Source of the DNA: Micractinium sp. NFX-FRZ
Lineage: Eukaryota > Chlorophyta > Trebouxiophyceae > Chlorellales > Chlorellaceae
Direction: 5' to 3'
DNA length: 64,000 nucleotides
NCBI GenBank assembly: GCA_029339195.1
Contig: JAPTJF010000024.1
Location: 62,001-126,000, forward strand
Shown: positions 1,524 to 63,665 of the stretch, piece by piece
Numbering within the stretch: the stretch's first letter is position 1
Layout of the letters: each line of letters begins with the position of its first letter
Notes under the pieces: model-generated
What the model was told of the DNA's origin: nothing
The model's input: the letters and a program-made list of their open reading frames with translations, nothing else
Database searches by the model: none
Program-made: the position numbers and the translations under genes

Positions 1524-4500
1524 ATGCTGGACATTAATCTTTTCCGGACAGGCAAGCAGCGCTTGGCACGGGCCTGCCATGCCACCCGCCGCATCGCGAG
1601 AGCGCTGGCCAGGGCTCCTCTCCTCCCGCTTCCAAGTCACGTACAATGCATAGGGGCCTCGGCTACGGAAGGATCCAGCTGGACTGCCGCTGCCTGCTGC
1701 ACGCCCGCCTTGCAGGCACTGCCGCCGCCTGCCGCCAGTGGGCCGCTGGCTGTGCCGCAAACTACGCAGCCCCTCACTCACTGCCCCCGACTCCCCTGCC
1801 CCCCTTTGTGCGTCCGGCAGAGCGTGGCGGCGACCCGGAGGTCGTGCGCGAGAGCCAGCGGCGGCGGTACAAGGATGTTGGGCTGGTTGACCGAGTGCTT
1901 GAGCTGGACGCCAAGTGGCGCGAGGGTGGGTGCTGGGCACTTGGGTGCTGGGGGTGGGCACATGGGGTGCTGGTGTGGGGTGAGCTGCTGTTTACTATGA
2001 AGCTGTTGGGTGCTGGTAACAGCGGTGAGTTTGAATGTGTGGCGCTGCCGCCCAGGCGGCCGGCTGGCAGGCGCTTCTGTGCACGTTGCAGGCAGGTGTC
2101 TGCTACGCCGCTGCCGCTGCTCTGCCCGCTGGATGGGCGTTTGACCGGCGGTCAAACCCCGCTTTTGCTGGGTGCAGCCCGCGGCATCCTGGACGGCCTC
2201 AACATGGACTTCAACAAGTTGAACAAGGAGATTGCCGCCCTGCGGAAGGTGGGTGCATATGACTGGGCAGGCGTGGAGACAGCAGGTGCTGGGGCAGGCT
2301 GAACAGGCGATTGCCGCCCGTGGAAAGTTGGGTTTGATACAACGTGTGGGTGCGTGAGGGGCAGCAATGGGGGCCCCCGGGGGCTGACGACAGCGGGGGC
2401 AGGGGCTGCTTCAACACGCTGAAAGAAGGAGAGTACCATTGTGAGCAAGGCGGATGCAACTGGCAAACACAAGTGAGGTGATGGTTTCTTGTGTTGCCTG
2501 ACAAATTATGCGGGTTGTGCCTGCAGCAAGGCTGCATGCATTCCTTGCATGTCAAGCGCCGACGCTTTGCCTCGCCTCCCCCGCCCCCGCCGCCCGCTGC
2601 CCGCTGCCCTCCCTGCAGGCCAAGCAGGACGCGAGCGCGCTGCAGGAGCAGAGCAAGGAGATGAAGGGGAAGATCAAGGAGGCCGAGGAGCTGGAGAAGC
2701 AGGTGGGGCTGGGAGGGCGTAAATGCCAGCGAGGGGCTGGGTCTGAGCGGCGTTGTTGGGGTGAAGGCCTGGCGGCATATGCCAGGCATGCAGCGGGGCT
2801 GGAGAAGCAGGTGGGGCTGGCTGAGAGGGGTGGCGCTGTGAGGGGCCTGGAGGTGTGCCGAGGCGGCAGCGGGGCCGGCTGAGCGGGTCGAGCGGCAAAC
2901 ATTTGTGAGCGGCGCACTGGCTAGCTCCCACAGGGTGTGTGGCCAGCCTCCCTTTGACATCCCTGCCCTCCCATCTCCCAACTCCCCGCAGCTGTCTGAG
3001 GAGCGTGACGCCGCCATCATCCCCATCGGCAACCTGGTGCCCGACAGCGTGCCCGTGGACGACGATGAGGTGGGTGGCAGTGGTGTGACTGCCCAGTGGA
3101 CGGAGGTGTTCAGTGCTAGGTGTGCATGTGCACTCAACGGACGACGGTGCGGTGGGTTACTGTTGTGTGTTGTGGACGATGGGTAGAGGATGAGGAGGTA
3201 GGTTACTGCTGTATGTAGAAGTGAGTGCTGAGAATATTGACACTTCTACATACACTTGTGTAGCCCTGAGGGGCGGCGGGGCAGCGGCAGCGTGCCGGTG
3301 GATGATGATGATGGGGCGGGCTGCATAGTGTTGGGGCTGTGTATGCCCCTCCTTCCTGCGCAGAGTGCGTCATCAGCCACCCTTCATATGTTTGCTGCGC
3401 TGCGCTATGCTTTGCATGCCGCGCTGGGCCAGGTGACGACACCTAACTTTATGGATCAACCATCGTAGCCCGCGGCGCCGCCCCCTCTGCGCGTGGCGGC
3501 GCCTGCGGTGCGAGTGCCGACACTCTTTCAGTTCCCGATGGCCCCACAGCGCACGCCCGCCTCCCCGCCTGCCACTGCATAGCACGCCACAGCATACATG
3601 CCATGCACTGGTGGACACATACATACACGCACCTCATACATCGCCACATGTGCATGGCCCACAATCGGTGCACACGCATCCGCCCTGCCACGAAACTGTG
3701 GCTTGCACCGGGGCGCGCCTCTCGCCCCTTGCACCGCACTCCCACACCTGCACTGCCAATCCATCTCGCTGTTGCCCTCCCTGCACTGCCAATCTCAATC
3801 ACTCCTTCCCCTCCCTGCACCACACCACTTCCCTCCCCGCACCATACCAATTCTCCCCTCCCCTCCCCTCCCCACAGAACCAATTGATTGATACCACTCC
3901 CCTCCCAGCACTGCCAATTGATAACACCACTCTCCTCCCTGCCTCATGCCCCTCCCCTCCCCTCCCCGCAGGACCACAACGCGGTGGTGAAGGAGACGGG
4001 GTCGCGACGCAACCTGGCGGAGGCGGAGGGGGGCGCGGGCGAGGAGAAGCTGTACAACCACGTCGACCTGGTGGGCCTGCTGGACATTGTGGACCTGGAG
4101 GCGGGCACCGAGGTGGCGGGTGAGGCGCCTGGTGGTGGTGGGGGGGGGGGGGTAGCTGTGACCTGGTGGGCCTGCTGGGCGTTGCGGAGGGCAACCATGC
4201 TGATGGGGGGCAGCTGCTGCTGCTGGGCTTTGCGGAGCTGGAGGCGGGCACCGAGGTGGCGGGTGAGGCGCCCTGTTTTAAGAAGGGGGGGGAAGAGCAG
4301 CTGTGCGGCTTGGTGGGCTTGCTGGGCGTTGCGGACCTGGAAGCAGGCACCGAGGTGGCAGGTGGGGTGCCGCAGGTTTGCAGCTGTGGGGGAGGCAAAG
4401 ACAAAACTGTGCAACCATTTGTGACCTGGCGGTGGCGCCGGTGGACTTTGGGGCAAAGGCGGCAGCTAAGGGTGGCCCAGGCAGCTGTGCACAGAGGCTG

Positions 4501-7500
4501 CAGGTGCGCGGGTCCTCCGGCACTGCCCGATGGGGGGCCAGCGCCCACTCCCTCCCGGGCCCTTCCCTTGCACACACACAGTTCCCACCTCTTGCCTGTG
4601 CCCTCCCTTCCTTGCACCCACCCGTCCCGTCCCCACCTCTTGCCTGTGCCTGACCCTGCAGGCAGCCGCGGTTACTACCTGAAGGGCGAGGGCGTGCTGC
4701 TGAACCAGGCGCTGATCAACGCGGCGCTGCAGTTTGGCTACAAGAACGGCTTCAAGCCCGTGCAGACGCCCTTCTTCATGCAGGCGAGTGCCAGTGAACT
4801 CGTGTGCTGATGGTGTTGTGCAGTGAGTTGCTGAGGGAGGATGAGCATGGACGGGCGGCGGCTGGAGGGTGGGGGTTGAGGGCTGGCAGTCGGAGGTTGG
4901 GGGTGGGGCAGGGTGGTTCCGGATGTGGGCGGGGGTGAAGTGCAGGCAGCCTGGCCGGCGCGCTTCTGGCGCTCACGTATCCCTCTTGCGCCTCATCGCT
5001 GCATCAAGCCCCCTCCCACTTTCCTTATAACCATGCCCCCTGTTGTTTTGGGCACCCCCCTGCAGAAGCCGGTGATGGCGGAGTGCGCGCAGCTGAGCCA
5101 GTTCGATGATGAGCTGTACAAGGTCACGGGTGGGTGGGGGTGGGGAAAGGAAGGGCGTGTGATTCATGTGTATGCCAGCAGCAGCAGCAGCAGCTGAGCC
5201 AGTTTGATGATTGGTCAGGGGTGGGTGGGGGAAGTGGGTGCGTCAAACACAGGGTGTGTGATTGAGTGATGTGTGTGCTGGCAGCAGCAGCACCAGCAGC
5301 TGAGTATTGCTGCCCATCACTGAGCATCTCACGTGCGGCAAGTGAGGCCAGCACACGCGTCCGCTGGCTGCAGGCGAGGGTGGGGAGCAGTACCTGACAC
5401 TCTGGGGTGCAGGCGAGGGGGAGGAGAAGCAACTGCTCTACACAAATTCGTTCTGATCGCACCCCCTGCTCTCGTGCATGCAGGCAAGGGCGAGGAGAAG
5501 CACCTGACATCTACACTTCAGCGCAGCCGTCGTGCATGCACCAACTGGTCCTGATCCCAATTGTATTGTGCTGGCTGCAGGCGAGGGTGAGGAGAAGTAC
5601 CTGATTGCGACCAGCGAGCAGACGCTGTGCGCGATGCACCGCAAGGATTGGATGGAGAAGAGCCAGGTGTGTGTGAGGGGGGTGGGTGGCTGTGCGCCTT
5701 GTTTGCCTGTGCAGTGCCAGGTGGGATGTGTCGTCAGGACGCCACTTCCCGTCGAGGTTGTGTGGGGTGCGCCGCCGCTGCCTCTGGCTCCTGTCCTTGC
5801 CCTGACACATGCCCCCTCACTGGCTGTCATTCCCGTGCCGTGTCCCCCCTGCCCTGCAGCTGCCCATCAAGTATGTGGGGTGCGCCACCTGTCGCCACCT
5901 TTGGCTCCCGCCCTCGCCCTGCCGCGCGCGCTCCCTCACTTCCCTTCCAAATTCCATGCTGCTGCCCCCTTCATGCAGCTGCCCATCAAGTACGTGGGCT
6001 ACAGCACCTGCTTCCGCAAGGAGGCCGGCTCACACGGGCGCGACACGCTGGGCATCTTCCGGTGAGGCGGCAGGCTGCGTGCCTGCATGCACATGTGGCG
6101 TGGTGGGTGGGTGGGGCGGCGGGCGGGCGCGACACGCTGGGCATCTTCCGGAGAGGGGGCAGGTGATGCTGTGTGGGGTGGGCGTGGGCATGGGAGCGAC
6201 ACGCCGGGCCCAGGCCTACGAGCCCAGGCTGTGTGCCTGCCTGGTCAGGGGGCATGCTCACGGTGGGTGGGACTGAGTTGGCCGACTGGGTGCAGCACTC
6301 TGGGCATCCTGTGTGCTGGCAACCGTTCGCCTCGCCCATGCTTGTGTGCGCCGTCTACCTGTCGCTGCAGCGTGCACCAGTTTGAAAAGGTGGAGCAGTT
6401 TGTGATCACCTCGCCGCACGACGACGAGAGCTGGAAGGCGCTGGAGGAGATGATTGGCAACGCAGAGGCCTTCTACACCGCGCTCGGCTTCCCCTACCGG
6501 TGGGTGGGCAGTCAGAAGGGGTAGAGAGGGAAGAGGGTGTGGTGGGGGCTGGCGGCATGTGCACCGCGCTCGGCTTGCATGCCTGGTGAGGCAGGCGGGT
6601 TTATCAGGGTTGTGCTAATGTGTGGATGGCAGTCATGCGTGCCAGAACTGCTCGCACGGCTCCCTCATGCCCCCCACCTCAGCTGCCCTGCGCCCCTTGC
6701 TGCACCACATCTCATACCCTGAACAAGGCGCCGCCCTCGAAAGATCCCTGCAGGCCTGCCCAGCCCTTACGCCCTCTTCTCACCTTGCCCCCCAAATCCC
6801 TGCCGCCCCTCCTCCCCTCCCCCTGCTGCGCAGCGTCGTCAACATTGTGTCGGGCGCCCTGAACGACGCGGCGGCCAAGAAGTACGACCTGGAGGCCTGG
6901 TTCCCCGCCTCCCGCACCTACCGCGAGCTCGTCTCCTGCTCCAACTGCACCGACTACCAGGTGGGGCAGGGGCGGGGGGAAGGGAGGGGGCTGGTAGGGC
7001 AGGGGTGGAGGAGGGAAGGGTGCCGGGAGTGGCGGGAAGATGTGGATGTCGCATACTGGTGTGGGCATCGGCGGGGGTAGGAGGAGGGAAGAGCGGGGGA
7101 TAGCTCGCATGGGGTGGCTGAGCAGTGGCAACGGCAGCGGGGGGGTGTAAGAGGGAGGAGTGTGGGGGAGAGGTCCCCTGCCACGGGCCCCCATCAACCC
7201 TCCCCGCCTCTTCCCTTCCCCTCTCGCCCCTGCTGCAGTCGCGGCGGCTGGACATCCGGCTGCGCACCGCCAAGGGCCCCGGCGGCGAGAGCAAGAAGGA
7301 GTTTGTGCACATGCTCAACGGCACACTGACCGGTGAGGAACGAGGGCACATGCTGCGCTGTGCCATGCTGCGCTGGGCTGGGCTGGGCTGGGCTGCACCG
7401 TGCTGTGTTGCTGCGCGAGCTACCGTGCCTCCCCGCCTCCCCCGCCATAACAATCAAGCGTGCCTCCCATTCTCTTGCTGTTCCCTGTGTGCAGCCACGG

Positions 7501-7991
7501 AGCGCACGCTGTGCTGCCTGCTTGAGAACTACCAGACGCCCGACGGCGTGCGGGTGCCCGAGGTGCTGCAGCCCTTTATGATGGGGATTGACTTCATCCC
7601 ATTCAGGTGACCACTGGCACTGTGTGGTGCAGGAGGCAGTGGCATGTGGCAATGTGCAGGGACGTGTGTGTGTGGGGGGGGGGGTGGTGGGGTGGGGTGG
7701 GGTGGGGTGGGGGGGGGGGGGGTATACTGAAGTCCGCATCAGGATGGCAGCTTTTTAAGCCACCAGTTGAGTCAACTCATGGCGGCTGTGTTGTTCTGTG
7801 GAACACGGAGCCTGCAGGGTGCCAAAGGCACGCGGGCGGCAAAACCAGACTCGTAACAGGCATGCCCCCCTTTCTGTGCGTGTGTTCTGCGCTGCAGGAA
7901 GCAGTTTGACGCCAAGGGCAAGCTTGTGGACCGGCCAGCGCCGGCCAAGGCGGCCAACAGCGATGCAGCGGCGGCGATGAGCACCAGCTGA
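1524..7991 (+). CDS. SERS: Seryl-tRNA synthetase (class II, cytosolic type), 15 exons
   Basis: Charges tRNA-Ser in the cytosol. Exons: 1524-1551, 1821-1925, 2178-2248, 2619-2702, 2992-3069, 3972-4119, 4662-4783, 5066-5129, 5581-5666, 5979-6061, 6371-6499, 6834-6960, 7239-7332, 7495-7606, 7898-7991. They total 1425 bases, giving 474 residues (Arabidopsis about 451). The start MLDINLFRT is the family signature; the next exon supplies [16 protein letters not shown]. The N-terminal coiled-coil arm follows, then class II motif 1 ([16 protein letters not shown]), motif 2 ([30 protein letters not shown]) and motif 3 near the end ([19 protein letters not shown]). Introns 1 (GCAAGC) and 7 (GCGAGT) begin with GC. 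Many introns hold decayed copies of neighbouring exon ends. No TGTAA signal was found downstream. Confidence 0.95.
3210..3254. repeat. Perfect 14-base inverted repeat in SerRS intron 5
   Basis: Arms at 3210-3223 and 3241-3254 (TGTATGTAGAAGTG and its complement) flank a 17-base spacer. The intron transcript can fold into a clean stem-loop. The local sequence is AT-richer than its surroundings. Confidence 0.85.
3284..3313 (+). repeat. Decayed copy of SerRS exon 5 end
   Basis: Resembles 3042-3069 (codons for DSVPVDDDE): it reads as [10 protein letters not shown] with third-position changes. It lies downstream of exon 5 inside intron 5. Confidence 0.65.
4152..4371 (+). repeat. Two decayed tandem copies of SerRS exon 6 end with donor sites
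   Basis: The true exon end (4062-4119, [19 protein letters not shown] then GTGAGG) recurs in pieces at 4157-4187 plus 4229-4272, and again at 4302-4371. The second copy still reads [18 protein letters not shown] and keeps a GT donor. The copies are interrupted by short insertions and a poly-G run. Confidence 0.85.
5185..5230 (+). repeat. Decayed copy of SerRS exon 8 end
   Basis: Copies CAGCTGAGCCAGTTCGATGA of exon 8 with one change, then GTGGGTGGGGG as at the real donor. It sits about 90 bases downstream of the true junction. Confidence 0.75.
5368..5508 (+). repeat. Three decoy copies of the SerRS exon 9 acceptor and first codons
   Basis: Copies at 5368-5398, 5408-5438 and 5477-5508 each contain TGCAGGCRAGG followed by GAGGAGAAG-like sequence. 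They match the true junction at 5574-5612 (TGCAG then GCGAGGGTGAGGAGAAGTAC). All lie upstream of the real exon. Confidence 0.85.
5852..5897 (+). repeat. Decoy copy of the SerRS exon 10 start
   Basis: Acceptor plus LPIKYVG codons are repeated about 120 bases upstream of the true junction (5972-6015), with Y and G codons changed at third positions. The match fades after about 40 bases. Confidence 0.85.
6126..6312 (+). repeat. Three decaying copies of the SerRS exon 10 end
   Basis: The sequence GCGACACGCTGGGCATCTTC from the exon end (6040-6061) recurs perfectly at 6128-6150, then weakly near 6196-6212 and 6292-6312. In the first copy the donor GT is changed to GA. The order suggests successive duplication and decay. 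Confidence 0.75.
7664..7723 (+). repeat. G-rich run in the last SerRS intron
   Basis: A GT run is followed by GGGGT repeats and two long G tracts. It could form G-quadruplexes on the transcribed RNA. Length in the assembly may be unreliable. Confidence 0.8.

Positions 7992-27510: not shown

Positions 27511-44152
<16,642 letters not shown>

Positions 44153-60127: not shown

Positions 60128-63665
<3,538 letters not shown>

What the first reader, a model, noticed from the sequence alone, without database searches (positions are those of the whole stretch)
1524..7991. SerRS introns are built from decayed copies of the adjacent exon ends
At least six of 14 introns contain degenerate copies of the neighbouring junction: exon 5, 6, 8 and 10 ends downstream, exon 9 and 10 starts upstream. 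Copies are ordered from well to poorly preserved and carry their splice sites. The same rule holds in NAT10, SMP, VDAC, CHD1, the copper ATPase, IDH and cytochrome c. It suggests a general process in this genome: local tandem duplication across splice junctions, with the outer copy decaying into intron. I know of intron gain by introners and by tandem duplication with AGGT, but not of a genome where existing introns grow this way as a rule.
Basis: partly seen in the sequence, partly recalled or inferred. Interest (0 to 1): 0.9.

Follow-up and report, generated by a model that had tools for sequence, protein, structure and literature searches.

The report
Introns grow by duplicating exon edges
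In this green alga many introns carry decayed copies of the neighbouring exon's edge, about 105 bases away and in the same orientation, which suggests that short duplications across splice sites have been lengthening its introns.

Summary
In the seryl-tRNA synthetase gene 8 of 28 adjacent exon-intron pairs match and 0 of 182 non-adjacent pairs do. In 344 kb from eight contigs of this chlorellacean genome, 95 of 544 tested introns carry a copy of an adjacent exon edge; in a 304 kb subset the rate is 88 of 980 adjacent edges against 11 of 14807 non-adjacent ones and 1 of 980 with reversed introns. Only the edge is copied: 98 of 1134 exon segments at 0-40 nt from the junction hit, 2 of 839 at 40-80 nt. 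Copies sit at a preferred spacing (92 of 121 at 60-160 nt, overall peak 100-120). A few young arrays repeat the whole unit, exon end plus splice site plus intron head. Introns with copies are about 100 nt longer. Best reading: tandem duplications across splice junctions, hidden because the outer site stays in use, then decay. Intron parts are more diverged than this simple model predicts, so edge-only copying is a live rival. 'As a rule' and 'ordered by preservation' are overstated. Intron gain by tandem duplication is known; this is a new variant.

The parts
1524..7991 (+). SerRS gene, 15 exons: 1524-1551, 1821-1925, 2178-2248, 2619-2702, 2992-3069, 3972-4119, 4662-4783, 5066-5129, 5581-5666, 5979-6061, 6371-6499, 6834-6960, 7239-7332, 7495-7606, 7898-7991
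   Evidence: open frame 474 aa; relatives 86-95% identical; Pfam Seryl_tRNA_N and tRNA-synt_2b
2300..2325 (+). intron 3 copy of exon 3 end (2220-2247)
   Evidence: score 30, the threshold
3285..3311 (+). intron 5 copy of exon 5 end (3042-3068)
   Evidence: score 34
4311..4359 (+). intron 6 copy of exon 6 end (4069-4117)
   Evidence: score 68
4220..4262 (+). intron 6, second copy of exon 6 end, followed by a GT; end read by eye
   Evidence: score 66 at intron offset 100; sequence
5190..5211 (+). intron 8 copy of exon 8 (5089-5110)
   Evidence: score 39
5374..5397 (+). intron 8 copy of exon 9 start (5581-5604)
   Evidence: score 38; the gene finder calls a false tiny exon at 5374-5379
5484..5507 (+). 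intron 8, second copy of exon 9 start; limits read by eye
   Evidence: score 33, 73 nt before the junction; sequence
5860..5891 (+). intron 9 copy of exon 10 start (5979-6010), preceded by AG
   Evidence: score 39; false tiny exon called at 5860-5874
6124..6150 (+). intron 10 copy of exon 10 end (6035-6061), 27 of 27 identical
   Evidence: score 54
6562..6576 (+). intron 11 copy of exon 11 near its end (6476-6490), 15 of 15 identical
   Evidence: score 30, the threshold
41187..41379 (-). CHD-like gene: 103-nt tandem array spanning an exon end and its intron, whole unit repeated
   Evidence: TRF period 103, 1.9 copies, 80% matches, 17 exon and 176 intron bases

Best explanation
Introns of this alga have been lengthened by repeated local tandem duplications, mostly of 70-130 nt, that span a splice junction. 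SHOWN: copies are in direct orientation, confined to the adjacent intron and to about the last or first 60 nt of the exon, and mostly run to the junction and its splice site; in a few young arrays the whole unit (exon edge, splice site, adjoining intron) is repeated head to tail. INFERRED: at birth two equal splice sites exist; lineages persist in which the outer site is used, so the protein is unchanged and the intron is one unit longer; the inner exon copy then decays. INFERRED, less sure: the narrow spacing is limited from above by the mutational mechanism and from below by splicing, because the intron stretch kept between real junction and copy must carry its own intron-side signals (branch point and pyrimidine tract before an acceptor).
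For: Adjacent 88 of 980 against non-adjacent 11 of 14807, other genes 22 of 28419, reversed 1 of 980; 16 of 54 introns on the contig not used for training. Edge only: 98 of 1134 at 0-40 nt, 2 of 839 at 40-80 nt. Match within 2 nt of the junction in 51 of 68 donor-side and 33 of 53 acceptor-side copies. Spacing: 92 of 121 at 60-160 nt, median of these 109; 34 of 65 seed pairs at 80-120 nt. Whole-unit arrays: C5 intron 8, unit about 105 nt, real edge plus five recognisable copies and a doubtful sixth; window 41187-41379; C3 gene, 81 nt. Similarity past the junction above other donors and above control introns at +7..+20, p 8e-4 donor side and 0.011 acceptor side. Introns with copies median 360 nt, without 258. 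Mismatches per codon position 0.130/0.164/0.166 in 63 events; segment between donors open in frame 15 of 35 against 341 of 667 in other introns. Spacers: 7 of 74 at 15 nt or less, 67 of 74 at 36 nt or more, none between.
Against: In most events the intron part of the unit is barely above background: beyond +20 on the donor side not significant (p 0.16 and 0.21), on the acceptor side significant at 21-40 (p 0.002) but not at 41-60. One decay rate for the whole unit predicts z 6.2, observed 1.5; threefold faster intron decay still predicts 3.1. Only 6 of 29 spacers of the better preserved events match the sequence after the copy. Exon sides are shorter than random placement gives (KS p 0.003, 25 events). 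Donor-side spacing is a multiple of 3 in 26 of 50 (p 0.012), an unexplained hint; acceptor side 9 of 35. Mismatch is lowest next to the junction (0.10 against about 0.2 further in).
Confidence: 0.66

Rival explanations
1. Only the exon edge with its splice site (20-60 nt) is copied into the intron, for example by short-range template switching, with an unrelated spacer; whole-unit arrays are a minority of other duplications.
For: Similarity falls sharply at the junction and the spacer matches the post-copy sequence in only 6 of 29 better preserved events; the simulation of whole-unit duplication with one decay rate fails.
Against: Whole-unit arrays exist at the same spacing; the intron part averages above control (z 1.26 over 58 events) and rises with exon identity, rho 0.39, p 0.002; an edge-only copy gives no reason for a constant spacing.
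Confidence: 0.2
2. The exon copies are kept by selection (decoy splice sites, alternative exons or another RNA role).
For: Exon-derived parts are better preserved than intron parts, also between intronic copies (0.84 and 0.62 for units 1 and 4); splice sites are often retained; donor-side spacing favours multiples of 3.
Against: No codon-position pattern; no excess of open frames between donors; copies are partial exons lacking the other splice site; intron phase has no effect.
Confidence: 0.08
3. Insertion of a small mobile element (introner-like) that duplicates its target at exon edges.
For: A constant spacing and exon sequence on both sides of a spacer resemble a target-site duplication.
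Against: Spacers of 29 events share no sequence with each other at E<1e-3; 2 of 29 have a short off-locus match (24 and 29 nt).
Confidence: 0.02
4. Chance or compositional similarity.
For: Introns are skewed, G-rich in the 5' part and C-rich in the 3' part.
Against: Non-adjacent, other-gene, reversed and two-away controls give 0-0.1% against about 9%.
Confidence: 0.01

Closest known systems
Intron gain by tandem genomic duplication of an AGGT-bearing exon segment (passages of PMC3443670, and PMC2891723; Hellsten 2011 and Gao & Lynch 2009 seen only as references there)
   Same: local tandem duplication inside a gene; duplicated splice sites; one copy ends up in an intron
   Different: there a new intron arises within an exon; here an existing intron is lengthened at its edge, with a preferred unit near 105 nt and at many junctions
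Small tandem duplications at DNA breaks, fill-in by Pol alpha-primase and end joining (passages of PMC8355091)
   Same: could be the mutational source; those passages describe short (<100 bp) duplications and duplications at breaks with 3' overhangs
Introners (start of abstract of PMC9860276)
   Same: a genome-wide process shaping introns
   Different: introners are dispersed copies of one element that create new introns; no shared spacer family is seen here

Membership tests
Local tandem duplication across splice junctions | direct orientation, restricted to the adjacent intron | tested here: met
   88 of 980 adjacent, 11 of 14807 non-adjacent, 1 of 980 reversed; 0 of 1754 two introns away
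Local tandem duplication across splice junctions | whole unit duplicated, intron part included | tested here: inconclusive
   clear in a few arrays; 6 of 29 by BLAST; weak on average
Intron gain by tandem duplication (AGGT type) | a new intron at a position with no intron before | not tested
   no related algal DNA could be searched; copies lie on the same side as the edge they come from, unlike the AGGT arrangement
Introner | dispersed family of similar sequences in many introns | tested here: not met
   29 spacers, none similar to another at E<1e-3; 344 kb only, not the whole genome
Alternative or mutually exclusive exon | complete exon copy with both splice sites, coding constraint | tested here: not met
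   copies stop within about 60 nt of the junction; flat codon-position mismatches
Break-repair small tandem duplication | formation at DNA breaks by fill-in synthesis | not testable with these tools
   needs experiment

The most novel reading that the evidence does not exclude
A splicing- or transcription-linked process duplicates units of about 105 nt centred on exon-intron junctions, so that introns in this lineage grow from their edges inward in near-quantal steps, and the exon-derived pieces outlast ordinary intron sequence because something protects or refreshes them.
Probability: 0.17. Interest if true: 0.88.

Novelty: new variant of a known kind. Interest (0 to 1): 0.64.

Why it matters
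How introns get longer is, to my knowledge, less understood than how they arise. Here length change leaves a readable record, because the exon supplies a nearly unchanging reference for each duplicated piece. Rate, unit size, position and survival of such events could be counted in one genome, and the pattern shows which duplicated splice sites a cell tolerates. It also warns annotators: copies carry plausible splice sites, and my gene finder called two false tiny exons exactly at them in SerRS.

Tried and rejected
Fixed-length element insertion: disfavoured, no shared spacer family (which replaces a count by eye). An argument (exon side and spacer are anticorrelated, rho -0.56, so the unit length is fixed) was dropped, because an error in the exon limit alone would produce it. 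Patchy gene conversion of the copy by the exon: mismatches are not clustered, 5 of 60 events at permutation p<0.05, longest run 13.6 against 12.8 expected; whole-copy conversion is not excluded. Coding function: no support, apart from the multiple-of-3 hint. One decay rate for the whole unit: does not fit. Intergenic control: 50-nt tiles give 9 direct hits per 260 kb of nearby intergenic target against 223 per 610 kb for intron on intron (low complexity not masked, 304 kb sample); tandem arrays of period 60 or more are 6 junction, 3 intron, 3 exon, 0 intergenic of 12, with 61 kb predicted intergenic. That is too little for a firm claim that intergenic DNA is spared. I looked for filled and empty introns in light-harvesting paralogues, but 0 of 36 predicted introns there have copies. 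An idea that donors tolerate short spacers and acceptors do not was dropped: 6 of 42 against 1 of 32. Literature: eight searches listed, by title and start of abstract, no paper on exon-edge copies in introns of Chlorellaceae; Blanc 2010 and Gao & Lynch 2009 are not held, so an earlier report is not excluded.

Full report
WHAT WAS CHECKED. The window lies at C24:62001-126000 of a 66.07 Mb assembly with 838 contigs. Its SerRS protein is 90% identical to Micractinium conductrix, 89% to M. tetrahymenae and 86% to Chlorella sorokiniana, so the organism is a chlorellacean green alga. I fixed the SerRS gene model (15 exons, 474 aa) and compared every intron with every exon. Eight of 28 adjacent pairs score 30 or more, none of 182 non-adjacent pairs does.

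EXTENSION. I fetched 280 kb more, so that the sample covers eight contigs including the window's own, and trained a simple gene finder on 304 kb, seeded with SerRS. It reproduces all 15 SerRS exons, which is not independent since SerRS seeded it, and adds two false tiny exons exactly at copies. In the 304 kb, 88 of 980 adjacent edges score 30 or more, against 11 of 14807 non-adjacent edges of the same gene, 22 of 28419 sampled edges of other genes and 1 of 980 with the intron reversed. Dropped before the count: internal exons under 25 nt, introns under 60 or over 1500 nt and introns next to an exon under 40 nt (490 of 544 introns kept). With contig C12, not used in training, 95 of 544 tested introns (of 599) carry a copy; by contig C24 40/150, C1 3/69, C2 13/66, C3 5/51, C5 8/73, C100 0/16, C60 10/65, C12 16/54. 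Gene models outside SerRS rest on the gene finder; Pfam confirmed the five submitted, SerRS included.

ANATOMY. Only the exon's edge is copied: 98 of 1134 forty-base segments at 0-40 nt from the junction hit their own intron, 2 of 839 at 40-80, 1 of 478 at 80-120, 1 of 260 at 120-160; edges against introns two away give 0 of 1754. Over 121 edges scoring 30 or more, the match reaches within 2 nt of the junction in 51 of 68 donor-side and 33 of 53 acceptor-side cases. The spacing from real to copied junction peaks at 100-120 nt; 92 of 121 lie at 60-160 (median 109, mean 111, s.d. 20) and a smaller group of 7 at 240-260. An independent seed method gives the same peak: 34 of 65 exon-intron pairs at 80-120 nt, 3 of 65 below 80. 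Splice sites are often kept: GT or GC in 39 of 48, AG in 23 of 35. Affected introns are longer, median 360 against 258 nt. A passage of PMC12636532 gives mean intron lengths of 179 bp in Auxenochlorella and 206 bp in C. vulgaris; here introns of 60-1500 nt average 308 over 592.

WHOLE UNITS. In a CHD-like gene on contig C5 (name by eye), intron 8 of 816 nt holds head-to-tail units of about 105 nt: 26 nt of exon 8 end, the donor and 79 nt of intron. Going inward, identity of the exon-derived part to the real edge is 0.92, 0.92, 0.88, 0.80, 0.83, 0.80 (the last two over only 12 and 15 columns) and of the intron-derived part 0.93, 0.89, 0.90, 0.64, 0.64, 0.33; the sixth copy is therefore doubtful. 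The window has a 103-nt example at 41187-41379, C3 an 81-nt one, and C5:182618-182838 repeats a 93-nt unit that contains an already copied exon start. In most other events the intron part is only slightly above background: mean z 1.26 over 58 events, rising with exon identity, rho 0.39; above control at +7..+20 on both sides, beyond that only at 21-40 on the acceptor side; spacer similar to post-copy sequence in 6 of 29 better preserved events. Own-donor similarity past the junction is above other-donor similarity.

WHAT DOES NOT FIT. Simulated whole-unit duplication with one decay rate predicts z 6.2 against 1.5 observed in 34 donor-side events; threefold faster intron decay gives 3.1. Between intronic copies of the C5 array the exon-derived part is also better preserved (unit 1 against 4: 0.84 and 0.62). 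Mismatches are not clustered and do not follow codon position (63 events in complete genes), but are fewest next to the junction. Possible reasons are slippage-prone intron sequence, loss of highly similar tandem units, whole-copy conversion by the exon, weak constraint, or edge-only copying. I could not separate these. Two tandem light-harvesting genes show some introns near-unalignable beside almost identical exons (exon columns 609 of 626 identical, intron columns 608 of 808 plus 334 gap columns), but exon homogenisation could cause that, and a passage on Auxenochlorella gives similar intronic (4.02%) and fourfold-site (3.44%) heterozygosity, which argues against generally faster introns.

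MECHANISM PROPOSED. Local tandem duplications arise in intron-containing DNA. Those across a junction survive if the outer splice site stays in use. Spacers between real junction and copy are 15 nt or less in 7 of 74 cases and 36 nt or more in 67 of 74, none between; branch-point-like CTNAY motifs peak about 40-60 nt before the acceptor. I infer that a surviving unit must carry its own intron-side signals, which together with an upper size limit leaves a spacing window around 105 nt and an exon part below about 60 nt. No RNA data were available. Whether duplication is aimed at junctions is open: tandem arrays of period 60 or more are 6 junction, 3 intron, 3 exon, 0 intergenic, and exon parts are shorter than random placement gives, but detection favours exon copies.

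AGAINST KNOWN KINDS. Intron gain by tandem duplication is well described (passages of PMC3443670; PMC2891723). Here existing introns appear to grow, with copies on the same side as the edge they come from. The eight searches named in Tried and rejected listed nothing like it, but two key papers are not held, so I call it a new variant of a known kind.

Noticed in passing
L030:1408-1569 (C132, - strand), gene B: A 162-nt intron in one of two tandem light-harvesting genes is absent from the otherwise nearly identical exon of the other gene: a recent intron gain or loss.
   Followed up: partly
L033:1233-1335 and 5374-5476 (C762): A 103-nt exon block is 100% identical between two neighbouring light-harvesting genes whose other large exon block is 92% identical; looks like a conversion tract.
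   Followed up: no
L030:4352-4444: A tandem duplication of about 49 nt in an intron of gene A is single-copy in gene B.
   Followed up: no
344 kb sample, predicted introns: GC donors in 35 of 599 predicted introns, SerRS introns 1 and 7 among them, and in 12 of 48 copied donors.
   Followed up: partly
exon-to-copy differences: A-to-G is the commonest change per base in copies on both sides (0.148 donor side, 0.114 acceptor side), more than T-to-C (0.093, 0.067).
   Followed up: no
window 62676-62946: 34-nt repeat arrays with 99-100% matches inside the IDH gene.
   Followed up: no
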